NCBI GenBank assembly: GCA_916048095.2
Contig: OU696594.1
Coordinates: forward strand, 3,534,281-3,598,280
Length of the DNA stretch: 64,000 bases
DNA from: Sacculina carcini
Taxonomy: Eukaryota > Arthropoda > Thecostraca > Sacculinidae
Reading direction: 5' to 3'
Part shown: positions 22,421 through 50,525 of the stretch, piece by piece
Numbering within the stretch: the first letter of the stretch is position 1
Layout: each line of letters opens with the position of its first letter
Notes under the pieces: generated by a model
Database searches by the model: none
Told to the model about the DNA's origin: nothing
What the model saw: the letters and a program-made list of their open reading frames with translations, nothing else
Position numbers and translations under genes: made by a program

Positions 22421-22940
22421 GTGCTCTGGAATCGCCGTTGAAAGTATTTCAAACACTAGTGACGAATGCAGTTGCATGGTGATATTGCTCATATTCTAGC
22501 TTCACGGTTTGACCCAGCAATACACATATAAGCAGCTAAGGCGAGTTTGGATGGTAGGTGGGACCCGTCATCTAACTCCTGGCCACACAACAATCACGAA
22601 AACTTGACAACAGCAGAGGAAATTATTCGGAGTATTTGAACTTTACACAAGTACGAGAGCTTTTGAGTTATTTCTTGACGAGAACATAATGCACCTACAG
22701 AGATGAAATACTAAAATCTATATTTGTATAGAAGACAACATAACGACTGGTCCAATAAGGCATAATTATTCACTCTTACTCGTATGACTCGTGAAGATAG
22801 ACTGAACAATAACACGATTGCTGTAACACACTATTGCAGACGAACATGAATGCATGACACATTCAGGTGTGACAACGGAGAATGCATTCCTGAGAAGAAA
22901 AGCACGACAAAAAATTATTTCACCATATGCACAAACTATG
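22421..22940. other. No recognisable gene; left edge of the mosaic region
   Basis: Unique-looking AT-rich sequence between the Harbinger element and the first mosaic module (about 22940). No ORF or RNA feature is supported. Confidence 0.5.
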
Positions 22941-22974
22941 AACAAAATGGACGTCAAGCCAGCCAGGTGGCTGA

Positions 22975-23100
22975 CATATTGACACGCAGTGCACTGCGTG
23001 CGTACGTGCAAAGGATCGAGGGTCCGTATCAAAGAATAGGATCGAGGATCGAGGGTCCGGCACACCGACGTATCCGACCTTGGCGGCATCCTAATCGTGC
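22975..23100 (+). repeat. Connector module A (GGATCGAGGGTCCG type), 4 copies
   Basis: Begins ACATATTGACACGCAGTGC and carries GGATCGAGGGTCCG twice, then a ~63-bp unit GGCACGCCGACGTATCCGACC...GGCATCCTC. The same module lies at 27450-27690 (three units), 28990-29145 and 30720-30905 (two units). Two copies (22975, 27450) are followed by the same Helitron Rep fragment. Confidence 0.9.
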
Positions 23101-23490
23101 TAATCAATGCCGCAATGACATATGTCCGCTACTTTGGTAAGCCCGACTTGTTCGTCACATTCACTTCCAACCCGAAATGTAATGAGATTCAACGTGAGCT
23201 GATTCCCGGTCAAAGACATGGTGATAGACAAGATCTTATTGCTAGAGTATATCGTTTGAAGCTGATCAAACTGATGTATCTTATAAAAAAGTCACAAATC
23301 TTAGGAGATGTAAGATGTACGCAATTGAGTGGCAGAAACGTGCCTCATTGTAAAATATTGCCATGACTAAAAACTCAAATCAATCATAATCAAATTCATG
23401 CTGTGATATCGGCAGCCTGATCCCGATAATGACCCAGTACTCGCTGATATTGTTAAGAAACATATGGTGCATTCTCCCCAACATGCGGAG
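23100..23490 (+). pseudogene. Helitron Rep-region fragment, copy 1
   Basis: Reads Y-F-G-K-P-D-L-F-V-T-F-T-S-N-P-K, the Helitron-like replication-initiator N-terminal motif. It continues D-L-I-A-R-V-Y-R-L-K-L-I-K-L-M and, after a frameshift, H-A-V-I-S-A-A and I-V-K-K-H-M-V-H. The catalytic HUH and Tyr residues are not preserved: the expected histidine pair is replaced at the frameshifted part around 23340. A near-identical copy lies at 27720-28090. Confidence 0.8.
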
Positions 23491-23654
23491 AAGGATTAGT
23501 GCGCTGCGTAGCAGCTCGTCTTTACGCATCGCTAACACCATCAGGGCTAGCGTCCATGATCGCACAGCACCCGCGTTTCGCAGAAACGGATGAGGGGATC
23601 CTTTTTTAAGGATATGCCGAGTATCAGGGGTCCGCCAGTTTAATCTTTTTCTCC

Positions 23655-24010: not shown

Positions 24011-24054
24011 GCAACACAGGACTTGACCCGTTAAAAAAGAATGAGAAATTGATA

Positions 24055-24300
24055 TTTCACTGTCCGCTCTGCCAGCCGATCTAATGGAGAGGTATATGGG
24101 ATATATCGGATCAAAAGCAGGCGAGCCAAGCAGGCCAAAAACGCAGATGACCATACCAAATACTACATTCACGTGACTTACAAAAACGCCGACGCCAACC
24201 TCCTGCGTCTCTAGGAATGTGTCATGGAGTCGGCGCCGCAGCTAGTCCTTCAGCTTTGTATTGTGTTCAACGAACATGAGACACACCGACGGCTGCCTCC
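24055..24300 (+). pseudogene. XK-related (XKR) protein fragment, middle part
   Basis: After an upstream frameshift the frame reads K-Y-Y-I-H-V-T-Y-K-N-A-D-A-N-L-L-R-L, a TAG stop, then E-S-A-P-Q-L-V-L-Q-L-C-I. E-S-A-P-Q-L-x-L-Q-L is the most conserved stretch of XKR membrane scramblases. In the family this part lies downstream of the segment found at 28110-28590, yet here it is about 4 kb upstream on the same strand, so the two pieces are out of order. Confidence 0.7.
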
Positions 24301-24390
24301 GTTTCCGCTCTCCGGCGACATTGACACTCCGGACTCGGAACGCGCTCCGCACACCCCAATCACCGTGACAATGCACGGGGTTTTCTATCA

Positions 24391-25470
24391 TCCGGGGGCA
24401 CAAACTGGGTCCTCTCACCCCTTACTTGGGGTCAAGTACTTCAGACATGACTTCTATCGTAAAACCATGAAATAACACCCATGATGACCCTGTGGTGAAG
24501 AAGGCCCTATATCTCCGATCAGACATCAACTGGTTCACTCCTACCGACTCAGTTCATATTGCAGTATTGGCAGGGAATTTGGAGGCTAATACAGGACGGA
24601 CAGACGAAGATAACCTTCTCAGATAAATTTGGGGAATCAATCCCTTGTTCCCTCGATTCATTAGCGAGTTTTACAATGCTACGCCATTAGGATTTTCAAA
24701 CTCAATCCACAGTATAGTGGAGAACTTCAGAACGGTGAGACTCCTCCTACCAGATACAAGCCAAAGAAAGCTGTCTGAGACGGTTACCATGTCAGAGTAT
24801 GTCATACTTGAGACCATCTGAACCACATGTAATCGGATCTGAGATCCGGGGGCACAAACTGGGTCCTCTCACCCCTTACTTGGGGTCAAGTACTTCAGAC
24901 ATGACTTCTATCGTAAAACCATGAAATAAGGCCCATGATAACCCTGTGGTGAAGAAGGCCCTATATCTCCGATCAGACATCAACTGGTTCATTCCTACCG
25001 ACTCAGCTCTTATTGCAGTATTGGCAGGGAATTTGGAGGCTAATACAGGACGGACAGACGAAGAGGACCTTCTCAGATGAATTTGGGGAATCAATACCTT
25101 GTTCCCTCAATTCATTAGCGAGTTTTGCAATGCTCCGCCATTTGGATTTGCAAACTCAATCCACAGTATAGTGAAGAACTCCAGAACGGTGAGACTCGTC
25201 CTACCAGATACAAGCCACAGAAAGCTGTCTGAGACGGTTAGCATGTCAGAGTATGTCATACTTGGGACCATCCGAACCACATGCAATCGGATCTGGGAAT
25301 GCAGCACAGTGGGCTGGTCATCTTCGGGCTCTATCGTTGGGCCGAGAACCAGCGGGAAGTACAGTTCCGCCTCCTTATATGTATGATCTGTCCTCCACTC
25401 GAGATGGTTTGATCAGCTCGAGCGCTGAATGCATCATATTCAACAAACTGAGTCTTTATTTCGGTAAATG
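24391..25470 (+). pseudogene. Endogenous mononegavirus-type L polymerase fragment (thumb/capping region), tandemly duplicated
   Basis: A ~454-bp unit (24391-24844) is directly repeated at 24845-25298 and continues to about 25470. One frame reads P-Y-L-G-S-S-T-S (L proteins carry P-Y-x-G-S in the capping region), then L-R-S-D-I-N-W-F-T-P-T-D-S. Another reads L-F-P-R-F-I-S-E-F, S-I-H-S-I-V-x-N-x-R-T-V-R and C-N-R-I-W-E-C-S-T. All are characteristic of Mononegavirales large polymerase proteins. In a virus the F-P-R-F-I-S-E-F block precedes P-Y-x-G-S; here the order is reversed, so the insert is rearranged. Stops and frameshifts are frequent. Virus family not determined. Confidence 0.7.
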
Positions 25471-26600
25471 AGGGCTCTCCGCTGGTCGATCAGGCGACGT
25501 GGAAGCCGTCTATATCCTGGCACATCTGATCATGTTTCTGGCCGAGGATGATTTTCTCCAATACAATAGACCTCACACATTGCATCTCTCGAAGGTGCTG
25601 GGCTAGCAAGACAGCTAACATATTGGACAATAAATATATTCAACATGGACATCTTGGGCCTCTCAACTACATGCCGCAACTATATGGAAAATTACCAATC
25701 ACCACTGTACTACTATGTACAACTTCTGGCAAGTTATATATTGACAGAAGCTATCTACCAGCAAGTAACTGATTATTACGCCCAAACTCTGGCGGGATAT
25801 GCTCCTTCACAAGCAAGCTACGAGCAGTAGTTCTACTGCTATGTATATCCACTGGAGAACTAGGCTTCACACCATGCCAACATTCAACTACATTTCAAAT
25901 ACCAAGTGGGAATACCAATTATAATACCAACTATAATACAATACCAAATACCAAGTATTCAAATACATTGCGGGAGAGATACCGCCACAGACAAATGCCA
26001 CAACAGTTATAGTCAGTTTTCTCTGTTTGTTGTTATTTTTAGGTGTTATAAAGATAACCCTTGCCAGAGGAATGTATCTGGACGCCACCACGTTGTCTGG
26101 CATTCCTCGGCCTCAGGCTGTCGATGGATCCAGAACCACACGTCGATATGCATCCGGCCCTCAGGAGGTCCTTATGCGAAGCCATACGGCATGCCCACCA
26201 CCGAGCCTTAGAATGGAGAAAGATTAGCGGGGTACGTGTCGTTTTTGTTGAGAGTTCTGCGATTACCAACCACACTTGTCACGCTTATTCTGCACTACCC
26301 GGCTCAGACGGCCGCCTTCGCGACCGCAATGATTACGACAGCACCCCTCCGGATTCCACCCGCCATTTTCTTTATGGTGGCCAAGGACGCGGCCACCACA
26401 GGCACAGGTATCGCGACACTCCACGGCGCATGGTCCGTGCCGTGGACGTCTCGGACCGAAATATCTGGCTCGCCATCCTAGGCCTGGCCCTTGCCAACGC
26501 GCAAGGCAGCCAACACACACTACTCGGCACCGATAACATCGGCCTGGCATACAACCTGGCCCGCCGAAGAATGCCACTCAGGATGGCGGCGGCGTATTAG
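25300..26600 (+). repeat. 1.3-kb segment duplicated at 43070-44370
   Basis: L-fragment tail, a tyrosine-rich stretch and the RT/RNase H fragment are present again, collinear and about 95% identical by eye, at 43070-44370. The downstream neighbours differ: the RNase H end here, Helitron helicase there. The tyrosine-rich frame (25645-25830; Q-S-P-L-Y-Y-Y-V-Q-L) is unrecognised. Confidence 0.9.
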
Positions 26601-26870
26601 CACCTGGTCGGCCAGCTACCTTTAATGGTGGCGTACTTGCCCACTACTCTAGACCCGGATGACGACCCGTCACGACGATGCGGTGATGGCGCTCTACAGC
26701 AGCGCCACCCGCTACTGCTGCCGCAGTGGAGGACCGTCAGTCGAGTTTGGGCTTCCGCCGAGAACAGACCGCAGCCTAGACTGCGGGGGCACGGGCGCAT
26801 CTGCGAAGGTTTCCACGGCCAGCCGCGACCACCAGAGATTCACAGCAGCAATTGCCGGCTGCATGATTGA
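26080..26870 (+). pseudogene. RT thumb/RNase H fragment of a hepadna- or retro-type polymerase, copy 1
   Basis: The frame begins L-A-F-L-G-L-R-L (RT thumb, about 26090). An overlapping frame reads K-D-A-A-T-T-G-T-G-I-A (RNase H first Asp, about 26385). It returns to W-L-A-I-L-G-L-A and L-L-G-T-D-N-I-G-L-A (third-Asp-type motif, about 26520), then V-A-Y-L-P-T-T-L and P-D-D-D-P-S-R (about 26640-26680). The closing N/D-P-x-D-D-P-S-R pattern resembles RNase H ends of hepadnavirus-like polymerases but also occurs in DIRS and other retroelements, so origin is open. Two frame changes and a stop at 26600. Copies at 39190-39450 (minus) and 43870-44370. Confidence 0.6.
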
Positions 26871-27420: not shown

Positions 27421-27719
27421 GCGCTCACAAAGAAGACGCCAAGGCAGCCAGGCAGACATATTGACACGCAGTGCACTGCGTACGTACGTGCAAAGGATCG
27501 AGGGTCCGTATACAAGAATAGGATCGAGGATCGAGGGTCCGGCACGCCGACGTATCCGACCTCAGCGGCATCCTCCTCGTGCTCTGTGGCTGCTGGACTC
27601 GGCACGCCGCCATATCCGACATCGGCGGCATCCTCTTCGTGCTCGGTGGCTGCTGGACTCGGCACGCCGACGTATCCCATCTCGGCGAGTCGCGCCAGTG
27701 CTGGCGACTACCACGACAA

Positions 27720-28090
27720 TGCCGCAATATCCGCAACTTTGGTAAGCCCGACTTGTTCATGACATTCACTTCCAACCCGAAATGTAATGAGATTCAACGT
27801 GAGCTGATTCCCGGTCAGACATGGTGATAGACAAGATCTTATTGCTAGAGTATATCGTTTGAAGCTGATCAAACTGATGTACCTTATAAAAAAGTCACAA
27901 ATCTTAGGAGATGTAAGATGTACACAATTGAGTGGCAGAAACGTGCCTCATTGTCATATATTGCTAAGACTAAAAACTCAAATCAATCCTAATCAAACTC
28001 ATGCTGTGATATCGGCAGCCTGATCCCGATAATGACCCAGTACTCGCTGATATTGTTAAGAAACATATGGTGCATTCTCCCCAATGTTGG
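27720..28090 (+). pseudogene. Helitron Rep-region fragment, copy 2
   Basis: Near-identical to 23104-23490 (same D-L-F-x-T-F-T-S-N-P-K motif, with an extra frameshift near 27745 and a small deletion near 27815). It is joined on the right at about 28085 directly to the XKR fragment, where copy 1 is joined to other sequence. Confidence 0.8.
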
Positions 28091-28109
28091 GATTTATTCA
28101 GGAAATACC

Positions 28110-28590
28110 ATGTCGCATTCGCCAGACAACCCTGTGCCGGTTTATTCGGATGTTGATTTGATCATCGAGTCCATGCTTGCCAACATCGGTACTCCTGAAA
28201 ACAGTGATTCTGGTGCCGTGACCCGGAGTGCTCACGATGCGAACAACACGACGGGCAATAATAATGACGAGGTGGATTGTGTAGACTACACTATCATTGA
28301 TGTGATATTCGTGTTATTGTCCATCTTCACCTTCCTGGCGGACATGGGCAGTGATATGTTTGTGGCCGTGCACTTCTACCGGCATCAACGACAATTGGAA
28401 TTCTATTTAACACTGGCGTTTGTCGTCTCGGCTTCGCTCACCATGACCCTCTTCAGTCTGCGCTGGTATCTGAACGAGGTTTATAATGTGGAAGGCCACG
28501 AGTTCAAAGGTGGAAGTGGATTGTGCGCATCATGTGCCTCATACTCCAGTTGAGTCCATTGCTGCGGAGTCGGAGCGTCGTCTGTTGGAA
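28110..28590 (+). pseudogene. XK-related (XKR) protein fragment, N-terminal part
   Basis: Starts with ATG and a ~65-residue acidic N-terminus, then two membrane segments: I-I-D-V-I-F-V-L-L-S-I-F-T-F-L-A-D-M-G-S-D (about 28300-28355) and F-Y-L-T-L-A-F-V-V-S-A-S-L-T-M-T-L (28400-28455), then L-R-W-Y-L. After a frameshift near 28505 it continues W-I-V-R-I-M-C-L-I-L-Q-L-S-P-L-L-R. This is the start of an XKR membrane protein (phospholipid scramblase family). The family's next segment is found at 24055-24300. It could be a host first exon, but its fit within the mosaic and the frameshift favour a captured copy. Confidence 0.75.
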
Positions 28591-28965: not shown

Positions 28966-29566
28966 TTAGTTAATGATGTGTTAACAGTGTAAATGTACGC
29001 ACGCAGTGCGTACGTGCAAAGGATCGAGGGTCCGTATAAAAGAATAGGATCGAGGATCCGGCACGACGACGTATCCGACCTCGGCGGCATCCTAATCGTG
29101 CTCTGTTGCTGCTGGACTCGGCACGCCGACGTATCCGACCTACCAGCAAGTAACTGATTACTACGTTCAAACTTTGGGGGGATATGCTCCTTCACAGCAT
29201 GTACGTTGCTCGACAACACTTACACTTTTGTGCTATAATATTTGTGATGATACATTTTTCACGCATAAACGGCGCAGTGTGTGTATTGATTTTTCACAAC
29301 GTCGCTCCTTCCCTCCTGGGGGTGAATATAGGGCGTCACGTACGCATCGGTGTGGCGATCAATAGTCCAGCGAAAGCATGACATGGCACTGTAGCAGGTT
29401 AGTTTAGCGATAGGAGCAACATGGAGTGATCCGATACACTTGACAATATTGTGGATTCTATTTTGTTTGATAATTCGACCAAATGTCCTCGTATAATGCC
29501 ACTTGAATGTTACGAGGCCGAGTTTTTGGAACAATCCAAACTTCCAGTAGTGAACAATAGTGTGTC

Positions 29567-30110
29567 ATGAGTAATAGTATGTCAATGAGTCAACGTATCT
29601 GGGTGATCATCGGCATGGCTAAATCTGATGCAGTTCGTAAGAGCTTGAAACGGTTCAAAAAATATCTGGACCTTTCTTTGAACTACTCTCAGCACTACGA
29701 CCCGTTTTGGAAGCTGAGCAAATCTAATGTGAAAATATTTTTCAGAGATGGGCTGATGCTTGTTTTACTGGACACTGTGACCAACCGCGCAATGAGGTAC
29801 GATGTTCTGAATAAATTGTTTGCAACTTTTGAAATACGTGTCAAATATGTCGTTCTTTCGCTAGTCGATGAATCATTAGTCTACAAACCACCGGCAGGCG
29901 GCGAGGACCAGAAGTTCGGCATCAACACTGTAATGAGCACGTTCAACGAAAGAAAACCTTTTCGCGTGCCGACCAAGCGCTACGACGAATTTCAAATGTC
30001 TCCCGACGATCTAATTATGAATGTTGTGGCCCATGGTGGACCGTTTTATAAAAAATTAAATAGTGCACCAAATATATTGAACAAAACTGTTTGTGTGTGT
30101 TTATCGCGAA
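29567..30110 (+). CDS. Unrecognised ORF U1 (possible viral protein)
   Basis: An intact frame of about 180 residues (M-S-N-S-M-S-M-S-Q-R). It has alternating hydrophobic and charged segments, Y-D-P-F-W-K-L-S at residue ~45, F-Q-M-S-P-D-D-L-I-M near the end, and then H-G-G-P-F-Y-K-K where it merges into connector module M1. A clearly homologous but much diverged version lies at 37990-38425, with Y-F-D-P-Y-W-N-I-S and F-Q-M-S-P-D-F-L-I-M. A piece lies at 34680-34875 and an N-terminal piece of the diverged type at 30510-30640. Divergence with conserved motifs implies two coding sources rather than recent copies. I do not recognise the family. Confidence 0.5.
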
Positions 30111-30480
30111 AAAAGAGCGTGGGAAAATAGCGCGAGGGAAAGATCGCGTGGGAAAATAGCGCATGGGAAAGAGCGCGTGGGAAAAGGGCGCGTGGGAAAA
30201 ATCAATAGGGTGAGAAAGAGCGTGAGAAAGATCAATAGGGGGGGAACGTGGGGGAATCATTGGGGGCGTGGGGGAGGGGCTGGAAAAAATCGATTGATTA
30301 GCGCCACTACTAATACTGCATGTGTGTGTGTGTATTTAGTACCATCCGCCGCTGCCGTTGGGTCGTCGCGGAGGCGTCGAGGATCGACGGGCAGTGGCAC
30401 CAGTCGCAAGACAACACACAACAACAGCATTACACATTACATTTCAGTCATACGACGCCTTCTCGCAAGCCGTCACAACC
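30000..30480 (+). repeat. Connector module M1: (GT)n, purine-rich minisatellite and conserved tail, copy 1
   Basis: Starts near CATGGTGGACCGTTTTATAAAA, has a (GT)n run, then a minisatellite of (A)GAGCGTGGGAAA/GATCAATAGGG units and a G-rich block. The tail contains GATTGATTAGCGCCACTAC and CAGTGGCACCAGTCGCAAGAC. Other copies: 34875-35580, 38400-39080, 46205-46755; a tail-only copy lies at 36330-36640. Each copy follows a different cargo (U1, a truncated U1, the diverged U1, and an L fragment). Confidence 0.9.
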
Positions 30481-30909: not shown

Positions 30910-31280
30910 ACACGAAATCGATTCGGTAACCAGAGCTCTTGTCGAGAATCGAGGATGTGCCTATTTTTCGGCGGCCTGCAGGGTCTAAAAATGACCAATG
31001 AATTTGTAAAAACATACAGGTCTGCTGTTTGGACGTTGGAGGGGTGCGTTGGACAAGCCAATAGGGTTGAGGACACCTGGGAGTCTCTTCGAAAACTACC
31101 CGACTTTCTCCATGCGAGGATGCTCGGGAACGATGATCACAGGTGGATACATGCGCAGTACACGGACCTGCTGTTCTGCGCGAATACCTCTTTCGCAAAA
31201 CACACCAAGACCATGGAGGGGTTTGACCTCGGGCGGAGCTCAACTGTGTTTACCCACGAGCTCTTGATACACTGGCAACA
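30910..31280 (+). pseudogene. Unrecognised coding remnant U3, copy 1
   Basis: Two frames together read V-T-R-A-L-V-E-N-R-G, R-S-A-V-W-T-L-E-G-C-V-G, A-R-M-L-G-N-D-D-H-R-W and F-T-H-E-L-L-I-H-W. The same remnant, about 90% identical but with different frame breaks, is at 49190-49595. That indicates a formerly coding sequence duplicated with its right-hand neighbours (modules E and D). Possibly viral; no family recognised. Confidence 0.5.
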
Positions 31281-32944: not shown

Positions 32945-33060
32945 ACGACGGAGACACTCTACAACCTACCGATCGGGGTTCTCCTCCAATATCAACTAGA
33001 GATCTCTCAGCCTGCAACTGCCAGACCGATTATACAGCACTGGGGGCCACAAGGACCCCC
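32945..33060 (+). pseudogene. Chromodomain-tail connector fragment
   Basis: L-Y-N-L-P-I-G-V-L-L-Q-Y-Q-L-E-I-S-Q and W-G-P-Q-G-P-P-G match the C-terminal half of the chromodomain-like ORF at 41618-42232. At 33061 the shared sequence ends exactly where the PB1-like sequence begins, in the same open frame. Confidence 0.75.
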
Positions 33061-34167
33061 TGGTGTATTAGAGACTAAATTGAACAGAAATACACTGGAG
33101 TGGTTTAAGAAAGTAAGGCCAGATCTTGATGACGAGGGATATATCCAAGCCCCATTTGGGATGCTTATGGGAATGGCCAATGCTACATCCACAGTGCTAG
33201 GATGCATAGCTGGTGAGTACAGGATTCCGCATGGCACAGATTGACAGATTGTGATATCTTCCGACGATTCTACCTCAGTGTTCTCTGCAAGGACAACTGA
33301 TGGACTGATGAAGGCAGTAAGATCAGCCCCAAACACAATGAAGATGGATGGCCAGAACTATTCGTTGGAGAAGACACTGTTGCTGCCCCCGGCATTGATG
33401 AATACACTAGCATGTATATTGAAGAAAAGTTCTGTTCCCAAGCAGGCTTTGAGACCTCCAAGCTGCGGCCAACCGGCAAAACACCACCCGATGATTCCCA
33501 CTCTCAAGCAGTGTCAGCATCAAACTCCCAGAGAGAACTGACAGTCAACTGCTTCGGGGCTGAGGTGTTTATCAGGGCGGGGGTGGAGAATGTGAGGCGT
33601 GCACACAGGGTATTGCATGATCCAACTAAGAGGACCCTCAGCAACAATGTCCTTCTGTCAGACGGAGGGAACAACATCTGGACACCCTTCAACTGTCACT
33701 TAGCAGAGATCCCCATGAGAGAAAGGTGGTGTAAAAACCAGGCCGACAGGGAATACCTCCTCAAATGTATGTCCCCCACGAATCCATTTATCGGATCACA
33801 TGATGAAACTGTCTCATATTCTAAGGATCTGGGCCAACTGGTGTTACAGGAAGTTGAGATTCCTAGGAATGCATTTTGTCTAATGCTAAGGTCTAATGCC
33901 ACCTTGAAGGGACTCTCAAAGAAGAGTGAGGTGAAACAACAGCGGGATAGTGAGGAAGCCGTAAGTGTTGTTGCCAGCGCCTTGCCTGTCTCACTGATAG
34001 CCAATCCAAAAGATCCTAGGAAAATGAGTGAAATCATTGGATTCTCAATGGCCCTAAACTTGCAGGCACTGGTATCGGCAGGGGCTATCACAGACTCAGA
34101 GTTAGAATTAGTAAGAAGAGCAATAAAGCGAGTAAAAGGAGACCAGGAAGGAATGGATGTCAAATGA
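33061..34167 (+). pseudogene. Endogenous orthomyxovirus-type PB1 (RNA polymerase subunit) remnant
   Basis: Covers polymerase motif B to the C-terminus. The first frame has P-F-G-M-L-M-G-M-A-N-A-T-S-T-V-L-G (about 33152). After an in-frame TGA at 33242-33244 comes S-S-D-D-S-T-S (33259), the S-D-D catalytic motif C. A frameshift between about 33300 and 33340 leads to a long intact frame ending at the TGA 34165-34167, with L-L-S-D-G-G-N-N-I-W (33655), N-P-F-I-G-S-H-D-E (33780) and a basic C-terminus. In viruses PB1 is the RdRp core of the trimeric polymerase. The first ~half of PB1 is absent. It may be closer to quaranjavirus-like than influenza-like lineages, but this cannot be settled by eye. 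One stop and one frameshift in 1.1 kb suggest modest age. Confidence 0.8.
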
Positions 34168-39450: not shown

Positions 39451-39462
39451 CAAGTCGCTTCA

Positions 39463-40150: not shown

Positions 40151-40209
40151 CAGATCGCTAGCCGTTTTGAATACTACGCTTCAATAACGACTGAATCAAT
40201 CATGGCGCA

Positions 40210-41067
40210 GTGCTTCACCAAGATGAGCGACATGCACCGGGCGGCACAAGACCTCGGCCCATCACGCGATCACAAGAGGCCACGTATTTAAGAGATTCCG
40301 CAGTATCATCGCTCGACCACGTACCCCTCTCGAGAGACGCAGCACTCTACCATCCAGTGTTTGGGGTAGGGTCTTGGAACCCGCTGGTCGAAATCCTGAC
40401 CGGAACACGGGTCATACAATATGAGGTGTTCAACGACGAAGACAACCACTTACTGGACCGTGTAAAGAGATCTGGCATCAGAGACGCGGTGATTAGAGGA
40501 CATTCGATGAGGAGCTTACTGGAAGTTTGGAAAAGCTACGCCGTGGTGACCGATGAAGTTGCTGCACCTTGGACAGTGCCGGCAGACCGGCGTGACGAGG
40601 CGATGTCCTTCATTCTGATGACTTCGGGGGAAGGGGTCTCATTACCGAACTTCATCAGGGAGAAGATCCACTCCGACTACATAAAATTCACATGGACTGC
40701 AGGGACGGTGAGAGAGATAGAATCCACCGCGACCGGACGGCGGCGGGATGTGTATTCGGAAATGACGATGAATGCGGCGGAGTCAGCAGACACGTCATTG
40801 CGCACACTGTGGACGTGGCAAAGCGGAGCTGCGGTCGGCGGTGTCATGGCAAGATGGGCAATACCTGCACCCACGTCGCTTGATGCGACAACGGAAAACG
40901 CCAGGGGGATGCTCGACAGGCTTAGGATTATGCCATGCACCAAACACCTGGTGTATGTGTCATCTGTCAACAGAAAAGCGGACATGGGTTTGGCTTTCAA
41001 ATGGCAAGGCAGTGTTACGAGGGAGTTGTACCACAGAGCAGGCTGGGAGCCATCGAAACGCCCTTGA
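40210..41067 (+). CDS. Unrecognised intact ORF U2 (285 codons)
   Basis: Open throughout, with no stop or shift, which is unusual in this mosaic. Visible: V-F-G-V-G-S-W-N-P-L-V-E-I-L near residue 50, S-F-I-L-M-T-S-G-E-G-V-S-L-P near 135, L-R-T-L-W-T-W-Q-S-G-A-A-V-G-G near 200 and a basic C-terminus. No signal peptide or membrane segment. It lies directly after the totivirus-like fragment and hairpin, so a capsid or other viral protein is possible, but I do not recognise it. The start is arbitrary within the open frame. Confidence 0.5.
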   Translation: MLHQDERHAPGGTRPRPITRSQEATYLRDSAVSSLDHVPLSRDAALYHPVFGVGSWNPLVEILTGTRVIQYEVFNDEDNHLLDRVKRSGIRDAVIRGHSMRSLLEVWKSYAVVTDEVAAPWTVPADRRDEAMSFILMTSGEGVSLPNFIREKIHSDYIKFTWTAGTVREIESTATGRRRDVYSEMTMNAAESADTSLRTLWTWQSGAAVGGVMARWAIPAPTSLDATTENARGMLDRLRIMPCTKHLVYVSSVNRKADMGLAFKWQGSVTRELYHRAGWEPSKRP

Positions 41068-41617: not shown

Positions 41618-42232
41618 ATGATCAACGGAGTATCTTCAATCTTGCCGGAGGCACTCATAAGAAGGATGCCGCGATACAACTTTGGAATTCGACGCCTCCT
41701 CGCCAGCCGTCACAATCAAGGGATATTAGAGGTGTTGGTGGACTGGGAAAATTGGTCTCCATACAACGTGACCTGGGAGCCACTATACAACTTGCCGATC
41801 GGGGTTTTACTCCAATATCAGCTGGAGATATCCCAGCCTGCGACTGATAACTCACTCATACAGCGCTGGGGTCCACAAGGGCCCCCTGGTCCACGACACA
41901 ACAAAGTGGGCACCTATCAGCATAAACCACAACGTCGACAACGCTTTAATGAACGACCCGACAGACAACTACAATATAGATGGGGGCACGTACCACTAGA
42001 AGACGGCCGGATGGTGATTTATGACATCGACAACGGATTGCCGCAGGCTCTTGTTCACGCCGATGACAACGACTGGATGGTTGACAGGGGAGAGCATCGA
42101 CGGAGTGTACCCTGCCGGTATACCGTTGTTGCCGGACATTGCCCCAAAACAACACCGCCAGCCTGGATCGGGACGCGGGCGTCAACATATACGCTAGGAC
42201 CACTTCACCAACATGCTATACTATTCATTTAG
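41618..42232 (+). CDS. Chromodomain-like ORF
   Basis: 204 residues. I-R-R-L-L-A-S-R-H-N-Q-G-I-L-E-V-L-V-D-W and P-Y-N-V-T-W-E-P-L match the chromodomain fold pattern (I-L-x-x-R, L-V-x-W, x-x-x-T-W-E-P). Chromodomains at integrase C-termini guide insertion into heterochromatin; module C upstream may be the end of such a Pol. Pieces of this ORF occur as connectors at 27388, 30430-30480, 30655 and 32945-33060. C-terminal to the chromodomain is a Q/R-rich region without motif. The frame is intact. Confidence 0.5.
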   Translation: MINGVSSILPEALIRRMPRYNFGIRRLLASRHNQGILEVLVDWENWSPYNVTWEPLYNLPIGVLLQYQLEISQPATDNSLIQRWGPQGPPGPRHNKVGTYQHKPQRRQRFNERPDRQLQYRWGHVPLEDGRMVIYDIDNGLPQALVHADDNDWMVDRGEHRRSVPCRYTVVAGHCPKTTPPAWIGTRASTYTLGPLHQHAILFI

Positions 42233-42239
42233 TATTTTC

Positions 42240-43060: not shown

Positions 43061-43069
43061 TCTGTAATC

Positions 43070-44370
43070 GGATCTGGGATTGCAGCACAGTGGGCTGGTC
43101 ATCTTCGGGCTCTATCGATGGGCCGAGAACCAGCGGGAAGTACAGTTCCGCCTCCTTATATGTATGATCTGTCCTCCACTCGAGATGTGCTGATCAGCTT
43201 GAGCGCTGAATGCAGCAGATTCATCAAACTGAGTCTTTATTTCGGTAAATGAGGGTTCTCCGCTGGTCGATCAGGCGACGTGGAAGCCGTCTATATCCTG
43301 GCACATCTGATCATGTTTCTGGCCGAGGATGATTTTCTCCAATACAATAGACCTCACACATCGCATCTCTCGAAGGTGTTGGGCTAGCAAGACAGCTAAC
43401 ATATTGGACAATAAAGATATTCAACATGGACATCTTGGGTCTCTCAACTACATGCCGCAACTATATGGAAAATTACCAATCACCACTGTACTACTATGTA
43501 CAACCTCTGGCAAGTTATATATTGGCAGAAGCTATCTACCAGCAAGTAACTGATTATTACGCCTAAACTCTGGCGGGATATGCTCCTTCACAAGCAAGCT
43601 ACGAGCAGTAGTTCTACTGCTATGTATATCCACTGGAGAACTAGGCTTCACATCATGCCAACATTAAACTACAATTCAAATACCAAGTGGGAATACCAAT
43701 TGTAATACCAATTATAATATAATACCAAATACCAAGTATTCAAATACATTGCGGGAGAGATACCGCCACAGACAACTGCCAAAACAGTTATAGTCAGTTT
43801 TCTCTGTTTGTTGTTATTTTAAGGTGTTATAAAGATAACCATTGCCAGAGAAATGTATCTGGACGCCACCACGTTGTCTGGCATTCCTCGGCCTGAGGCT
43901 GTCGATGGATCCAGAACCACACGTCGATATGCATCCGGCCCTTGGGAGGTCCTTATGCGAAGCCATACGGCATGCCCAACACCGAGCCTTAGAATGGAGA
44001 AAGATTAGCGGGGTACGTGTCGTTTTTGTTGAGAGTTCTGCGATTACCAACCACACTCGTCACGCTTATTCTGCACTACCCGGCGCAGACGGCCGCATTC
44101 GCGACCGCAATGATTACGACAGATTCCACCCACCATTTTCTTTATGGTGGCCGAGGACGCGGCCACCACAGGCACAGGTATCGCGACACTCCACGGCGAA
44201 TGGTCCGTGTCGTGGACGTCTCGGACCGAAAATATCTAGCTCGCCATCCTAGGCCTGGCCCTTGTCAACGCACAAGGCAGCCAACACACACTACTCGGCA
44301 CCGATAACATCGGCGTGGCATACAACCTGGCCCGCCGAAGAATGCCACTCAGGATGGCGGCGGCTCGTTT
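43070..44370 (+). pseudogene. Second copy of the L-tail plus RT thumb/RNase H block
   Basis: Collinear with 25290-26590: C-N-R-I-W-D-C-S-T (L capping-type fragment), the tyrosine-rich stretch, then L-A-F-L-G-L-R-L (43870) and W-x-L-A-I/L-x-L-A-like RNase H with T-D-N-I-G (about 44300). A 12-bp deletion near 44125 and several shifts break the frames. It is joined at 44370 to Helitron helicase sequence, where copy 1 continues into the RNase H end. Confidence 0.75.
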
Positions 44371-45180
44371 TCTTGCCTGAGAACCGTCAATGGCCAGGAG
44401 TTTGAGACATACAGAGAAGCGTGCCTGCAGCTGAACTTGCTTGAAGAGGACACTCAGTGGGATAACACATTGTCAGAGACTGCACTTTCCCGTATGCCTT
44501 CAACCTTGAGAAAACTGTTTGCCGTCATGCTACACAATTGCCAGATTAGCAATCCTCTCGAGTTGTGGCAAAAGTATAAGGATGATCTGTCGGAGGATTA
44601 CAGATACAGAGTACAGCTGCTCATCCCCGGCCGACATGTTGGTTTTACGAATGAGATATATAATTTTGCACTCGTTGATATTGAGAGCCATATCATTTCC
44701 ATGGGGGGCCAAAGACTGACCTCATTAGGTCTTCCTGAGTCCCTAACCGATGCAGGCACCACACTACATCCTAATGTTTTGCGGGAGACGTCCTACGATA
44801 TCACGTCACTGACATCATTCATTGATGATAATGTTACCAGACTGCTGTCTCAGCAACGATCTGCCTATACGGCAATCATTGATGATGTCACCCACAAGAG
44901 AGGTGGATTGTATTTCATCGATGCGCCTGGGGGAGCAGGCAAAACGTTTGTCATCAACATTTTGCTGGCTACAGTTCGTCAAAGGAGAGACATTGCTGTA
45001 GCGGTGGCAAGTTCGGGAATCGCTGCCACATTGTTGCCTGGTGGTCGCACCGCCCACTGACTTTCAAAATTCCAATTAATCTCGACACAAACGATGAACC
45101 AGTATGCAATATCAGTAAGAACTCAGAGACGGCAGAGCTCTTCAAAAGATGAGCACTGATCATCTGGGAGGAAGCGACAA
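44371..45180 (+). pseudogene. Helitron PIF1-type helicase fragment, copy 1
   Basis: Open from 44437 to 45060. Starts C-L-R-T-V-N-G-Q-E-F with L-E-E-D-T-Q-W-D, continues L-P-E-S-L-T-D, and carries the Walker A motif G-G-A-G-K-T-F (about 44930-44950) and V-A-S-S-G-I-A-A-T-L-L. A stop interrupts at 45058-45060, and a shifted frame continues to E-E-A-T-M-S-H (about 45170). The helicase unwinds the displaced strand during Helitron transposition. 44410-45215 matches 47210-48045 at about 97%. Confidence 0.85.
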
Positions 45181-45291
45181 TGTCTCACAAAAAATCTCTC
45201 GAGGCAGTCAACAGGACATTGATGTGATATGTAGTAGTAGGCTGCTACACTTTGTGACATTTGCAGTGAGTGGGGGAAGTGGGGAGGGGAG

Positions 45292-45385
45292 GTTTTTTTT
45301 GCACGGTTCAGGCCCCGCCCCCTTATGACGTCACAGGTTTTTGCACGGTTTAGGCCCCAAGCCCTTATGACGTCATTTTTGCACA
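45292..45385 (+). promoter_or_regulatory. Two tandem units each with a TGACGTCA (CRE) palindrome
   Basis: Unit TTTTTGCACGGTT[C/T]AGGCCCC...CCTTATGACGTCA occurs twice, with perfect TGACGTCA at 45326-45333 and 45368-45375, the CREB/ATF consensus. It lies just upstream of the L-like ORF. The functional role is inferred from sequence only. Confidence 0.55.
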
Positions 45386-45399
45386 CTCAGGTGGCGCCC

Positions 45400-46202
45400 T
45401 CTATACCTGACCAGTCATCACACATCGAAGAAGGCACCATCCCGTATGATTGGAGAGTAATGGTTGGAATTATGAAAGAGAAAGAGGCGAAAATCGACAA
45501 TGCGCGCTGCTTCTGCAAGCTCACGCAGGAACTACGAGTGTACCAGACATTGACCGAACGGAACATCGCGAAAAGCGTGTTTCCGTACATACGTGATCAA
45601 TCAATGACAATGAGCGAGAAGGTGTTGTTGGACACGCTTTGCTCGATGACAGCCCCGTTTGGCGCCGACGAGCCGAAGTACGGATTCGTGAGTCTGGACT
45701 ACTCACGCTGGTCCATTTCACACGATTCGTGCTCGTCGCTGTTCGTGGAACTCGATGCCTTGTTCGGCCTCAAACGGGTGTTCTCATTTTCACAGATTTT
45801 CCCGTATCTGTGCGCAGTGGTCTTTCAGGACCGATTCAGGCCTCCGCTCTACCGGTCAGACGAGCCCGATGATGGTCCACAGGTGTGGAGAGCTCCAACA
45901 AGGTGGATGGAGGGAATGAGGCAGAAGGGTTGGACTCTCCACACCCAATGTACCATCCTGGCTGTCGCGGAAGAGCGAGGAACAACAGCAACGTTACTTG
46001 GCCAAGGCGGCAATCAAGTGATTGTCATTGAAATTCCGCCTCCTCATGTGTTGGATCGCCTTGGCCAAACTGCTTTTGAATTTATTTCCGCATTTGTTAT
46101 GAGCCTGGCGAACAGATCAACGCAGCTGGGTATGACGCTGAAGTCCGATGAGACCTGGCTGTCGACGGTGCTATTCGAGTATAGCAAGGTCTACCACTTC
46201 CG
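45400..46202 (+). pseudogene. Endogenous mononegavirus-type L polymerase fragment (palm), active site GGNQ
   Basis: Open without a stop over about 265 residues. Features: K-E-K-E-A-K-I (motif A-upstream block), F-V-S-L-D-Y-S-R-W-S (motif A with catalytic Asp, about 45690), R-W-M-E-G-M-R-Q-K-G-W-T (motif B, about 45900-45935) and Q-G-G-N-Q-V-I (motif C, about 46003-46023). Viral L proteins have G-D-N-Q in motif C; here the catalytic Asp codon is GGC (Gly), so polymerase activity is lost. The upstream CRE-like repeats supply part of the same frame. At 46202 the viral frame is replaced by module M1 (H-G-E-P-F-Y-K-K). Family below order not determined. Confidence 0.82.
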
Positions 46203-46204
46203 AG

Positions 46205-46755
46205 GCGTCCATGGTGAACCGTTTTATAAAAAAATTAAATAGTGCACCAAATATATTGAACAAAACTGTGTGTGTGTGTTTATCGCGAAAAAAGAGCGTG
46301 GGAAAGAGCGTGGGAAAAATCAATAGGGTGAGAAAGAGCATGGGAAAGATCAATAGGGGGAGGGACGTGGGGGAATCAATGGGGGCGTGGGGGAGGGGCT
46401 GGAAAAAATCGATTGATTAGCGCCACTACTACTACTGCATGTGGGTGTGTGTATTTAGTATCAGCCGCCGCTGCCGTTGGGTCGTCGTGGAGGCGGTCGA
46501 GGATCGACGGGCAGTGGCACCAGTCGCAAGACAACACACAACAGCATTACACATTACCTTTCAGTGGACAGACGTGGTGTCGGCACTGTGGGCTCGAGTA
46601 AAGTGAGCCGCGACTTACACACACTCACACACACTCACACATGTATGTGCATATACTGCGAGATACACTAGGGAGCACAGGGAGAGAGTGGTGCAGGATC
46701 AGAGTGAAGGCGAGGCTCGCTCATCATCGGGCACATCCGCCATTTTTCGGCAAAT
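46205..46755 (+). repeat. Connector module M1, copy 4
   Basis: Same (GT)n, minisatellite, G-rich block and tail as at 30000, with a CACACTCACACA insertion near 46615. It is cut at 46740 by the join to Helitron sequence. Confidence 0.9.
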
Positions 46756-48050
46756 GTTGCGATAGCAAGGGACAGAGACAGTATGAATTGGGAATATATT
46801 TGAGTACGAATGATGCTTTCTGGCTTATATTTGGGTTCCCCATTCATGAAAGACATCCTGCCATTCAACAGCTTGCTATGCATCTTGAAAATGGCCAGTC
46901 TTTTTCACAAGTCAAACCGCCGAACAAATAGCTAACAATAAAAAAGACCACTCTCATAGCATGCTTTGAACTTTGCCAACGTGACGATTTTGCTCGAACT
47001 CTTTTGTACCATCAGGTTCCGTCCTATTACACGTGGAACAACAGCCAATGGCAAAGGCGTAAGAAAGGTGTCGATGTTGGAGAATTCACAGGCATCAAAT
47101 TTGACACAATTGGCAGAGTTTATTATGTGCATCCCAATCACAGGGAGTGCTTCTTTTTGAGAATGCTTCTACATGTCGTCAAAGGGCCCACCTCGTTTTC
47201 TTGCCTGAGAACCGTCAATGGCCAGGAGTTTGAGACATACAGAGAAGCGTGCCTGCAGCTGAAATTGCTTGAAGACGACACTCAGTGGGATAACACACAG
47301 AGACTGCACTTTCCCGTATGCCTTCAACCTTGAGAAAACTGTTTGCCATCATGCTAAACAATTGCCAGATTAGCAATCCTCTCGAGCTGTGGCAAAAGTA
47401 TAAGGATGATCTGTCGGAGGATTACAGATACAGAGTACAGCTGCTCATCCCCGGCCGACATGTTGGTTTTACGAATGAGATATATAAGTTTGCACTCGTT
47501 GATATTGAGAGCCATATCATTTCCATGGGGGGCCAAAGACTGACCTCATTAGGTCTTCCTGAGTCCCTAACCGATGCAGACACAACACTACATCCTAATG
47601 TTTTGCGGGAGACGTCCTAAGATATCACGTCACTGACATCATTCATTGATGATAATGTTCCCAGACTGCTGCCTAAGCAACGATCTGCCTATACGGCAAT
47701 CATTGATGATGTCACCCACAAGAGAGGTGGATTGTTTTTCATCGATGCGCCTGGGGGAGCAGGCAAAACGTTTGTCATCCACATTTTGCTGGCTACAGTT
47801 CGTCAAAGGAGAGACATTGCTGTGGCGGTGGCAAGTTCGGGAATCGCTGCCACATTGTTGCTTGGTGGTCGCACCGCCCACTGACTTTCAAAATTCCAAT
47901 TAATCTCGACACAAACGATGAACCAATATGCAATACCAGTAAGAACTCAGAGACGGCAGAGCTCTTCAAAAGATGAGCACTGATCATCTGGGAGGAAGCG
48001 ACAATGTCTCACAAAAAATCTCTCGAGACAGTCAACAGGACATTGATGGA
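46755..48050 (+). pseudogene. Helitron helicase region, copy 2 (longer)
   Basis: Begins earlier than copy 1: P-I-H-E-R-H-P-A-I-Q-Q-L-A-M-H-L and, after a stop and shift, D-D-F-A-R-T-L-L-Y-H-Q-V-P-S-Y-Y-T-W-N and G-R-V-Y-Y-V-H-P-N-H-R-E-C-F. These are the conserved Helitron segment before the helicase. Then come the copy-1 region, with a deletion near 47300 and a TAA near 47619, and the same Walker A G-G-A-G-K-T-F (about 47755). The extra 5' part suggests that copy 1 derives from a shorter piece of the same source. Confidence 0.85.
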
Positions 48051-48249
48051 TATACGCGACTCAAATATGTTGATGGGAGGCAACACAGTAGGCAGTAGGC
48101 AGTTGATGGGAGGCAACGGTTTACACCAATCAAACATACACCATTAGCACTCCAATGCATTTTATTTCACTATCTGTCACATATGTACATTAATGATTCT
48201 AACAATTCAATTTTGTTTTAAAACATATTTGAACCATATATAAATTTCA

Positions 48250-48900
48250 GCAATGCCTCGCAAAAAAATGAGTCGTTCACTCCACGAACCAGGAGAGCCA
48301 GTGGAGAGGCAGACAATGACCCAACCGACGATCAGCGACCGGGGCCATCAAACGCGGAGTCTGGCGGCGCACAGCCGCCAATTTACGACGAGCAATCTGG
48401 GCCGTCCACGGTGTCATCTGATGACCACCAACGACGACAGCGGGCGGCTCAGCGCAAGGCAGCTGTGCGTCGCCATGAAACGCCTGAGCAGGCCGCCAAA
48501 CGCCGCAAGGATGACACTGAGCGGACTGCGGCCGTTCGGCGCGGTGAACCAGTGGCCGAGGCCGAGAAGCGGCGCCAAGTGAACGCTGAGCGTACTGCCG
48601 CTGCTCGGCAAATTGAAACGGACGAGGAAGCCGAGCAGCGGCGACGACTGGACGCCCAGCGGACGTCCGATAGTAGAGCCAATGAAGACCCAGAAGCCAC
48701 AGCACAGAGACAGTTGCGAGACAGGCTACGCCGTATTGAAATTGAACATCGTCCTTTCCGTCCTGATCAATGGAGATTAGCTGCATTCAATTACAACCCA
48801 ATTATCCATATGAAGCACAGCCTCTTCTTTCGATAGGGTGTAGTCCTAAAAAGGTTGATTTCCCCAAAGCCAATTTCACGTTAAGGCTTCACCATTTGGT
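48250..48900 (+). pseudogene. Helitron N-terminal region with 20-residue STPR-like repeats
   Basis: Plus frame 48411-48836 has repeats of the type R-x-E-T-P-E-Q-A-A-K-R-R-x-x-D-x-x-R-T-A at ~20-residue spacing (four units), then L-A-A-F-N-Y-N-P-I-I. This repeat plus A-F-N-Y-x-P block is found at the N-termini of Helitron and related proteins. After about 48790 the frame shifts. The natural order (this, Rep, helicase) is not kept: Rep pieces lie at 23 and 27.7 kb. Confidence 0.7.
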
Positions 48901-49189
48901 AATCAGAGCAATTTGCACGTTTAAGCTCGTAGAAGCATCACCAACAGTGTAGTGTACACAAGTTTTAAGACAAATATATAATATGAAACACATTCATCAG
49001 CATAGCACAGTAATACACTATATGTACACTGCGAATATGACAGCTTGGCTTAAGGCGCTGGAACAACATCATACTACCTGACCCTGTGTCTATTCACTGT
49101 TGCCGCCGAGGGATACCAAGCTGAAACGGCAAAAACTCATCGGGAGCTCGAATCGACACATAGACACGGTGGGACACTGCATGACTCAG

Positions 49190-50525
49190 CTCCGAGATCA
49201 AATGGCAGCCAACACAAAATTCCTGTTGAACACCAACGAGATCAATTCGGTAACCAGAGCACTTGTCGAGAATCGAAGATATGCCCATTTTTCGGCGACC
49301 TGCAGAGTCTAAAATGACCCATGAATTTGTCCAAACAGACAGGTCTGCTGTTTGGACGTTGGAGGAGTGCGTTGGACAACCAATAGGGTTGAGGAGACCT
49401 GAGTCTCTTCGAAAACTACCCGAATTCTCTATGCGAGGATGCTCGGCAACGATGATCCCAGGTGGATACATGCGCAGTACCCGGACATGCTGTTCTGCGC
49501 GAATACCTCTTTCGCAAAACACACCAAGAACATGGAGGGGTTTGACCTCGGGAGGAGTTCAACTGTGTATACCCACGAGCTCTTGATACACTGGCGACAC
49601 ACAAGTTCTCACGCATTTTTGTGTTTTTGTGTCGCCAGTGTAACGAGGCGACGCAATGCCTAACATCACAACATTGCGCCGCCTAACGACTCCGTTACAT
49701 TGGTGACCCCGACGACTAAACATCATTCATTTATTCTTAAAAATTGTTTGATTGCGGCTTGACTACTTGTGACGGTTTATCACGAGCCATACGATGGATA
49801 ACCTCGGGATGATGACCTCGCGGCTGCGGTGATTGCCGCCCTGCGTACAACAGGAGGGTCGGTCAGGTGACCCAGCCAACGACCAGAGGCACATTCCAAC
49901 GAGTCGCTCCGCCTACTGTCCTAGATGAGGTGGCTCGAGCCTGGATGACCAAGTTGAAACCAACCAATACACTGTAGAGGCGGATAGCGACTACCGATGG
50001 GATTCCCGGATCGTCGCTGTAGGAGGCAATTGGGGTGTCCGGCATGCGGGTAACAATACTCCTGATGCAGGCGGGCGTTCTTGCTGGAGCTTCCCCGGGG
50101 CAAACCTACGCCGCATACCTGGTTTCCAACGTGGAGACACTCCACTACCTCGACGCGCAGTGTTCGACCTCCCAGCTGGCCACATATGCCATATGTGACC
50201 ATGGTGGGAATCGACCCGGCCCCCCGGAGATTGCGGCTCTGAGGGCCAAGTTCAGGAGAGACCTCTACGGAGAATGGGGGGTTGATTGAGTGGTACCAAA
50301 CACCAGTGGGTGTGAATGGCCTCACGGATCACCCATATGCCAGCAGACCGCTCTACATCACCGACTGGAAAATCAGAGGGTGAACTTCTAGTAGTAGTAA
50401 AGGCTAGTAGAGGAGAGTCACAGCACCATATTCCGGACAGACCTCCCTTCCTCCCGGGCTACAAGCGACGCACCCTCCCATCAGACAACGGGACAGTGGT
50501 GCCACGTCCCTAGTTCGCTGCGTCG
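49190..50525 (+). pseudogene. U3 + module E + ORF D, copy 2
   Basis: Duplicate of 30910-31905 with about 90% identity. U3 is at 49190-49595. Module E is at 49592-49705, ending CGTTACA then TTGGTGACCCCGACGA (primer-binding-site-like, 49697-49715). ORF D runs from ATG 49794. Here ORF D continues past the truncation point of copy 1: P-P-E-I-A-A-L-R-A-K-F-R-R-D-L-Y-G-E-W-G, later D-R-P-P-F-L-P-G-Y-K-R-R, ending near 50513. Frames are broken by several shifts. ORF D occupies the gag position of an LTR element but is unrecognised. Confidence 0.55.

What the first reader, a model, noticed from the sequence alone, without database searches (positions are those of the whole stretch)
22940..50525. A 27-kb mosaic of RNA-virus, host-gene and transposon fragments joined by recurrent connectors
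At least three kinds of RNA virus polymerase remnant (mononegavirus L, orthomyxovirus PB1, probable totivirus RdRp), an RT/RNase H fragment, two XKR pieces, Helitron and MULE pieces and several unknown ORFs lie in short blocks with sharp joins. The same connectors (modules A, C, E, M1, chromodomain tail) recur between different cargo. Non-retroviral RNA virus sequences can enter DNA only through reverse transcription, and many sources in one place implies an active capture process. It may be an EVE-rich piRNA cluster, or a retroelement or Helitron lineage that assembles cargo by template switching or capture. The sharing of connectors between unrelated cargo is, as far as I know, not a described architecture.
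Basis: partly seen in the sequence, partly recalled or inferred. Interest (0 to 1): 0.9.

Follow-up and report, generated by a model that had tools for sequence, protein, structure and literature searches.

The report
Amplified graveyard of virus and transposon fragments
In an arthropod chromosome, broken pieces of several RNA viruses, transposons and a host gene lie together in a locus that has been copied over and over; the mixture is of a known kind, but the heavy tandem copying of virus polymerase pieces is unusual.

Summary
The mosaic is real: 24 of 30 tested joins recur elsewhere in the locus, 20 of them in copies that differ from the window. It is one stretch of a roughly 1.1-Mb duplicated locus on contig C35 of an arthropod genome (94 cuticle-domain matches), with its halves in opposite orientation. 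It holds fragments of orthomyxovirus PB1, bornavirus-like L, rhabdovirus-like L, a probable bornavirus-like nucleoprotein and a candidate toti-like capsid/polymerase pair. PB1 occurs in at least 68 copies, all found on C35, mostly in 1.697-kb tandem arrays. The 'connectors' are not one capture machine: one is probably the nucleoprotein remnant, one a piece of a Polinton-like element, one a dispersed chromodomain tail, one a local repeat seen only here. Best reading: a transposon and virus graveyard, perhaps a piRNA cluster, rebuilt by duplication. Less expected is the genome-wide picture: L fragments form tandem arrays on several contigs, and L lies within 5 kb of the candidate toti-like pair at two further loci, more often than chance. 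Small RNAs could not be tested.

The parts
23040..23366 (+). Helitron N-domain fragment
   Evidence: Helitron_like_N E 7e-16; 23105-23481 repeats 27717-28084
24215..24472 (+). second XK-related (XKR) host-gene fragment; the base run before it reads like an intron 3' end (my reading)
   Evidence: XK-related E 0.0012, below cut-off, over the first 22 residues; sequence
24390..25298 (+). two 454-bp tandem copies of a rhabdovirus-like L fragment; a further piece lies reversed at 37684-37808
   Evidence: tandem repeat; Mononeg_RNA_pol 0.003, below cut-off; vesicular stomatitis virus L chain 5a22_A 1.4e-7; repeats
25282..26593 (+). module D, unidentified; second copy at 43063-44364
   Evidence: 95.7% over 1313 bp; no family over its cut-off in the frames scanned
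26599..26825 (+). RT/RNase H-like fragment, weakly supported; inverted copy at 39223-39449
   Evidence: DNA_pol_viral_C 0.024 on the frame 38983-39459 minus; no match for 26601-26867
27717..28084 (+). second Helitron N-domain fragment, joined to the XKR exon at 28084
   Evidence: Helitron_like_N 8.8e-4, below cut-off, for 27808-28020; join seen in 3 other copies
27993..28553 (+). open frame holding an XK-related (XKR) host-gene fragment
   Evidence: PF09815 E 5.2e-13
29561..30130 (+). fragment related to a gene in the long inverted repeats of a Polinton-like element
   Evidence: 30% identity over 159 aa to the arm ORF; relatives on many contigs; the arm also codes an adenovirus-type protease
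29986..30448 (+). connector ending TTTCAGT; other copies at 34873-35185, 38369-38778 and 46209-46565
   Evidence: 45 matches, all on C35, but only 40 of 113 genome candidates scored
30912..31365 (+). 'connector' that is probably a bornavirus-like nucleoprotein remnant; second copy near 49236-49699
   Evidence: 61% over 105 aa to L046; L046 matches BDV_P40 at 0.003, below cut-off; L045 did not
32950..33064 (+). chromodomain-tail piece joined to PB1
   Evidence: 81% to 41776-41890; the join occurs in 21 other matches, some from overlapping loci
33064..34167 (+). orthomyxovirus PB1 remnant, frame-broken; 288-codon open frame from 33301
   Evidence: Flu_PB1; 85 matches forming at least 68 copies, all on C35, 77 of 77 candidates scored
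36283..36630 (+). connector ORF seen only at the C35 locus; part of it forms a 179-bp tandem repeat elsewhere in the locus
   Evidence: 77 of 77 matches on C35, 89 of 89 candidates scored
38002..38397 (+). diverged second member of the 29561-30130 protein family
   Evidence: 30% identity over 82 aa
39426..40187 (+). candidate toti-like polymerase fragment (inferred); overlaps a hairpin, arms 39853-39995 and 40010-40152
   Evidence: no family or PDB match; relatives incl. C4; hairpin
40195..41067 (+). candidate toti-like capsid fragment (inferred)
   Evidence: no family, PDB or database match; relatives on C4, C6, C7, C29, C30 and C35, short ones on C19 and C37
41612..42232 (+). chromodomain tail of a dispersed element
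   Evidence: Chromo 2.9e-5, just under the curated cut-off; matches on many contigs
44308..45060 (+). Helitron helicase fragment; 44364-45230 repeats at 47192-48053
   Evidence: PIF1 1.6e-19 and 5.6e-20; 97% identical
45241..46242 (+). bornavirus-like L remnant (about residues 53-323 of the open frame); the ends are other DNA
   Evidence: Mononeg_RNA_pol 1.9e-38; best PDB chains 9x1v, 9h1g; many long matches on other contigs begin at residues 42-54 and end at 323, and residues 1-58 match other places alone

Best explanation
The mosaic is a graveyard locus. cDNA copies of several RNA virus genes, DNA transposon pieces (Polinton-like, Helitron, Harbinger) and fragments of a host gene accumulated in one region of C35. 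The region was then rebuilt by local tandem duplication, segmental duplication in steps of tens of kilobases and inversion to about 1.1 Mb. 'Connectors' recur because these blocks were copied, not because they carry cargo. Shown: composition, copy number, shared joins, dispersed origin of some connectors. Inferred: virus pieces entered through host retroelement reverse transcriptase; tandem arrays grew from a founding duplication by unequal exchange. Plausible but untested: the locus is a piRNA source that retains inserts.
For: All matches to the PB1 piece (85 of 85) and to the connector ORF (77 of 77) lie on C35 between about 3.32 and 4.44 Mb, plus strand up to 3.90 Mb and minus strand from 4.01 Mb. 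Segmental repeats in the 200 kb fetched: for example 18.3 kb at 99.4% with offset 66,103 and 11.7 kb at 98.9% with offset 72,339; other pairs have other offsets and 90-99.7% identity. The seven PB1 tandem joins read break at the same base. 24 of 30 joins recur, 20 of them in copies under 100% identity. The L|connector join, one of the six not found there, is crossed by L matches at C35:3,317 kb and 3,687 kb, where connector matches also begin. Connector identities. The Harbinger copy at 18728-22417 is a clean insertion with a TAA repeat and empty sites in two array copies. Orientation: 10 of 12 elements that I judged independent are on the plus strand (p 0.039).
Against: The mode of entry is not seen: I could assign no poly-A or target-site repeat to any virus piece. 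Six of 30 joins were not found in the sequence held, and for four of the 24 (30630, 40188, 41090, 47192) the other copies are 100% identical, so they are weaker evidence against misassembly. The orientation tally is a post hoc judgement and marginal; its two minus-strand entries are a weak RT piece and an unknown frame. Nothing here shows transcription or small RNAs. The connector DNA search scored only 40 of 113 candidates, so weaker copies elsewhere are not excluded. Several blocks are unidentified.
Confidence: 0.75

Rival explanations
1. It is an active antiviral piRNA cluster: a long precursor, in this half probably transcribed right to left so that virus pieces are antisense, yields piRNAs against the viruses, and tandem copying raises the dose. 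(An addition to the best reading rather than an alternative to its history.)
For: Several virus remnants and many transposon fragments in one locus; five of five virus pieces on one strand, counting the candidate toti-like pair as one (p 0.06); [quoted passage not shown] shrimp clusters are scrambled (PMC9357335, passages).
Against: No small-RNA or RNA data; the other half of the locus is inverted; a piece of the rhabdovirus-like L also lies reversed.
Confidence: 0.4
2. A Helitron or retroelement lineage captures unrelated cargo and spreads it, with connectors as its backbone.
For: Helitron coding pieces lie among the cargo; a Helitron piece is joined to an XKR exon in the window and three other copies; the second XKR piece seems to keep an intron end.
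Against: Identified connectors have different origins. The connector ORF 36283-36630 is found only on C35. The PB1 unit join read shows no Helitron-type ends (ends recalled). One stretch from each of two L arrays elsewhere lacks the connectors.
Confidence: 0.08
3. A Polinton-like element picked up RNA virus pieces and carried them here.
For: The chromodomain tail adjoins PB1 and the connector adjoins L; chromodomain and arm-ORF loci lie near each other (6 of 53 within 20 kb, 0.9 expected).
Against: No virus piece was seen inside a whole element; the middle of the one complete element could not be read.
Confidence: 0.06
4. The PB1 frame has been domesticated and makes a protein in many copies.
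For: 28 of 46 copies that match over the full 288 codons have no stop (my count); 15 amino-acid against 8 silent single changes in 17 open rows.
Against: That ratio does not differ from neutral (p 0.12); the 17 rows were picked for being open, two loci are in them twice, and two multi-base codons were left out; 18 of the 46 copies carry a stop; PB1 is broken over two frames.
Confidence: 0.05
5. Assembly artefact.
For: Long near-identical repeats are hard to assemble; adjacent units of a C1 array are 100% identical over 1,682 bp.
Against: 20 of 30 joins recur in copies that differ from the window; insertions and empty sites coexist.
Confidence: 0.03

Closest known systems
EVE-rich piRNA clusters of Aedes mosquitoes (PMC5497376, passages read)
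   Same: Fragments of several non-retroviral RNA virus genes packed with transposon pieces, with duplications, in regions of 113 and 312 kb.
   Different: There: rhabdo- and flavivirus pieces with LTR retrotransposons, and piRNAs shown. Here: PB1, L, nucleoprotein and candidate toti-like pieces with Polinton-like and Helitron pieces, tandem arrays of virus units, about 1.1 Mb; piRNAs untested.
Scrambled IHHNV EVE clusters of Penaeus monodon (PMC9357335, passages read)
   Same: Scrambled virus fragments interspersed with host repeats and retrotransposon pieces.
   Different: One parvovirus per cluster, 7-15 kb, bracketed by direct repeats; here four or five RNA virus sources and far greater copying.
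Orthomyxovirus PB1 EVEs of ticks (PMC10675110, passages read)
   Same: PB1 homologues in arthropod genomes.
   Different: The word 'tandem' does not occur in that main text; here at least 68 copies at one locus.
Toti-like EVEs of planthoppers (PMC10636211, passages read)
   Same: Capsid and polymerase pieces of toti-like viruses in arthropod genomes.
   Different: There shown by similarity to known viruses; here inferred from paired loci and gene order only.

Membership tests
EVE-rich piRNA cluster | several non-retroviral virus fragments in one locus | tested here: met
   PB1 and two kinds of L; probable nucleoprotein
EVE-rich piRNA cluster | many fragmented transposons | tested here: met
EVE-rich piRNA cluster | inserts mostly in one orientation (uni-strand type) | tested here: inconclusive
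   10 of 12 by my tally, p 0.039; virus pieces 5 of 5, p 0.06
EVE-rich piRNA cluster | 24-31-nt small RNAs, 1U bias | not testable with these tools
   no small-RNA data
Helitron capture lineage | Helitron proteins present | tested here: met
   Helitron_like_N and PIF1 pieces
Helitron capture lineage | units begin TC and end CTRR after a hairpin (recalled) | tested here: not met
   PB1 tandem unit only, seven joins read by eye
Helitron capture lineage | connectors flank cargo at many unlinked sites | tested here: not met
   connector ORF only on C35; two L-array stretches without connectors; other connectors not tested this way
Retroelement template switching | poly-A tail and target-site repeat at virus pieces | tested here: inconclusive
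   none assigned by eye at the joins printed; duplication obscures original ends
Polinton/Maverick (source of one connector, perhaps two) | long terminal inverted repeats | tested here: met
   3.87-kb arms, 99.5%
Polinton/Maverick (source of one connector, perhaps two) | adenovirus-type protease | tested here: met
   Peptidase_C5 6.8e-8
Polinton/Maverick (source of one connector, perhaps two) | protein-primed polymerase B and integrase | not tested
   part of the element not readable; frames read nearby matched no family over its cut-off
Totivirus EVE | similarity to a known totivirus protein | tested here: not met
   no match; therefore named candidate only
Totivirus EVE | capsid gene followed by polymerase gene | tested here: inconclusive
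   C4 relatives lie in that order on one strand, but the roles are inferred

The most novel reading that the evidence does not exclude
This genome has a recurring process that turns RNA virus remnants into tandem repeats. PB1 has at least 68 copies, L forms arrays on several contigs (about 3,148 bp x ~20 on C16, 1,618 bp on C1, about 4,090 bp x 4 on C8), and remnants of different viruses sit together at unlinked sites. Virus sequence would then be selectively amplified, for example for small-RNA dose, or become satellite DNA at a structural locus.
Probability: 0.2. Interest if true: 0.85.

Novelty: new variant of a known kind. Interest (0 to 1): 0.55.

Why it matters
It shows how far virus remnants can be copied after capture. 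A PB1 remnant became tens of tandem copies, and L remnants form separate arrays elsewhere. If small RNAs arise from them, copy number could be a dial for inherited antiviral defence; if not, RNA virus genes are raw material for satellites. It also warns that 'shared connectors' inside a duplicated locus do not imply a shared capture mechanism.

Tried and rejected
Capture backbone: dropped after the connectors that could be identified proved to have different sources. Head-to-tail virus concatemer as the source of the toti-like order: not adopted, since the join carries a 143-nt hairpin and a rearrangement is simpler. Coding PB1: not supported. Identification of the toti-like pair failed by family, PDB and database searches and by a single-sequence fold (pLDDT 31). 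A database search with ORF 29561-30130 found nothing; its origin came from the genome search and a pairwise comparison. No RNA family matched. Naming the species failed: two assembly-size searches gave no candidate; one guess, Sacculina, was looked up in passages and left (a 298-Mb draft). Literature searches. In the rows and abstract starts listed (4, 0, 0, 4, 0, 1, 8 of 687, 15 of 53 and 11) I saw none on tandem RNA-virus EVE arrays like these; papers not listed or not held are not covered. One search printed its test values and then stopped with an error; its last part was rerun.

Full report
WHAT WAS CHECKED. The window is C35:3534281-3598280 of a 264-Mb genome in 43 contigs. The host is an arthropod by its 94 matches to the chitin-binding cuticle family PF00379, all over the cut-off and none in the 14 control genomes; that this family marks arthropods is recalled, and the nature of the control genomes was not shown. 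The species is unknown to me.

THE OBSERVATION. The mosaic is real. Pfam gives PB1, mononegavirus L, XK-related and Helitron helicase matches. A second, weaker XK-related piece and two Helitron N-domain pieces were added. The PB1 piece lies in three open stretches in two frames and is not an intact gene. Of 22940-50525, 52% is repeated within the window and 94% has a copy of at least 85% identity in the 200 kb to the left; the right flank also has 76%, the left flank 23%. I tested 30 joins with 201-bp probes in the fetched sequence: 24 have at least one other copy spanning the join, 6 have none (28638, 43059, 44364, 45390, 46209, 48053). In 20 of the 24 a spanning copy differs from the window; in four (30630, 40188, 41090, 47192) the spanning copies are 100% identical. 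A few probe positions were approximate ends of blocks rather than mapped breaks, and some fetched loci overlap, so copy counts per join can be high. One of the six, 46209 (L to connector), is crossed by L matches at C35:3,317 and 3,687 kb where connector matches begin.

THE LOCUS. The mosaic belongs to a much larger duplicated region. Segmental repeats are seen in the 200 kb fetched, the longest being 18.3 kb at 99.4% (offset 66,103) and 11.7 kb at 98.9% (offset 72,339); other pairs have other offsets and 90-99.7% identity. PB1 and connector matches run from about 3.32 to 4.44 Mb, on the plus strand to 3.90 Mb and on the minus strand from 4.01 Mb. PB1 gives 85 matches, which I sort into 68 copies: 46 that match over the whole 288 codons, or all but one (28 without and 18 with a stop), and 22 partial; all 77 candidates were scored and all matches lie on C35. 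The tandem unit is 1.697 kb, and the seven joins read break at the same base with no homology that I could see. This fits one founding duplication followed by unequal exchange (inference).

WHAT THE CONNECTORS ARE. (1) 30912-31365 and its copy near 49236: 61% identity over 105 aa to an ORF on C3 whose protein matches the bornavirus nucleoprotein family at E 0.003, below the curated cut-off; a sister ORF on C26 did not match it. So this connector is probably a virus remnant itself. Close copies are on C35 only; relatives of 40-59% identity occur on C3, C19, C21, C26 and elsewhere on C35 (83 of 83 scored). (2) 29561-30130: 30% identity over 159 aa to an ORF in the 3.87-kb inverted repeats of a roughly 17-kb element that also codes an adenovirus-type protease. 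Relatives are on many contigs (150 of 341 candidates scored). I call the element Polinton-like; polymerase and integrase were not seen. (3) The chromodomain tail is dispersed on many contigs (150 of 435 scored, list cut). It lies within 20 kb of the arm ORF at 6 of 53 entries, 0.9 expected (capped lists), which suggests but does not show a common element. (4) 36283-36630 was found only on C35, and a part of it forms a 179-bp tandem repeat there. (5) Helitron pieces. Module D and others stay unidentified. So the identified connectors have several ordinary sources and recur because the locus was copied.

OTHER VIRUS PIECES. The 454-bp tandem repeat holds a rhabdovirus-like L fragment (VSV L chain, 1.4e-7). 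The main L is nearest to PDB L chains of 1,711-1,756 residues; 'bornavirus-like' is my reading of those lengths together with the nucleoprotein match, recalled rather than looked up. The pair 39426-40187 and 40195-41067 has no family, PDB or database relative at the thresholds used (the database search was run for the second only), nor have two pieces of a relative on C29 (families for both; PDB and database for one). On C4 their relatives lie in the order 40195-type then 39426-type on one strand, like capsid then polymerase; hence 'candidate toti-like'.

GENOME-WIDE PICTURE. L gives 126 matches (121 of 288 candidates scored) on many contigs, with tandem spacing on C16 (about 3,148 bp, about 20 copies with a gap), C1 (1,618 bp, then about 4.8 kb), C8 (about 4,090 bp, 4 copies) and others. 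In one C1 stretch adjacent units are identical over 1,682 bp, and the one C16 unit read matches the window and the fetched 200 kb in L only. L and the candidate toti-like pair lie within 5 kb of each other at C16 and C30, in different arrangements: 2 of 12 toti entries near 52 L entries, 0.02 expected, P 2e-4 (entries collapsed by hand and the test thought of after seeing the pairs). This clustering outside C35 is the strongest sign that such pieces gather non-randomly. Against a virus-specific process: a host cuticle gene family also has 20 matches in one cluster on C30, and no comparison with non-viral sequence was made.

MECHANISM. Most likely: reverse transcription of virus RNA by host retroelements (general knowledge), insertion into transposon-rich DNA, then repeated duplication. 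[quoted passage not shown] Ten of 12 elements that I judged independent lie on one strand (p 0.039): both L, PB1, the toti-like pair, the nucleoprotein, the arm ORF, the chromodomain tail, two Helitron pieces and XKR on plus; the RT piece and an unknown frame at 37210-37557 on minus. That is a post hoc tally. No expression data exist here.

VERDICT. Known kind of locus, unusual in tandem copying and in the number of virus sources. What remains of interest is the repeated conversion of virus polymerase remnants into tandem arrays.

Noticed in passing
window 18728-22417: Harbinger-type element (DDE_Tnp_4 9e-26 and MADF 4.6e-8) with a TAA target repeat; two array copies keep the empty site.
   Followed up: yes
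window 53762-54349 and 56480-56853, minus strand: NFU1-type gene exons beside the mosaic (NifU 2e-27 for the first; the second by eye); copies in the fetched left unit differ by insertions and deletions, intactness not established.
   Followed up: partly
window 3598-5361, minus strand: Penelope-like ORF: reverse transcriptase (3.8e-7) with a weak GIY-YIG match (0.072); the name is recalled.
   Followed up: no
C35:3218-3234 kb: Four matches to the candidate toti-like capsid relative on the minus strand, spaced 4.1, 4.1 and 6.7 kb, about 80 kb left of the big array.
   Followed up: no
several contigs outside C35: One search lists open frames of over 1,000 codons around L matches; I did not read them.
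   Followed up: no
C35:4206.7-4213.2 kb: A 179-bp tandem repeat made of part of the 36283-36630 connector.
   Followed up: partly
C30:335-429 kb: Twenty cuticle-protein matches in a cluster, so clustered copying in this genome is not limited to virus pieces.
   Followed up: no
the 200 kb fetched: A roughly 17-kb Polinton-like element with 3.87-kb inverted repeats inserted in one array unit; the window holds the empty site.
   Followed up: partly
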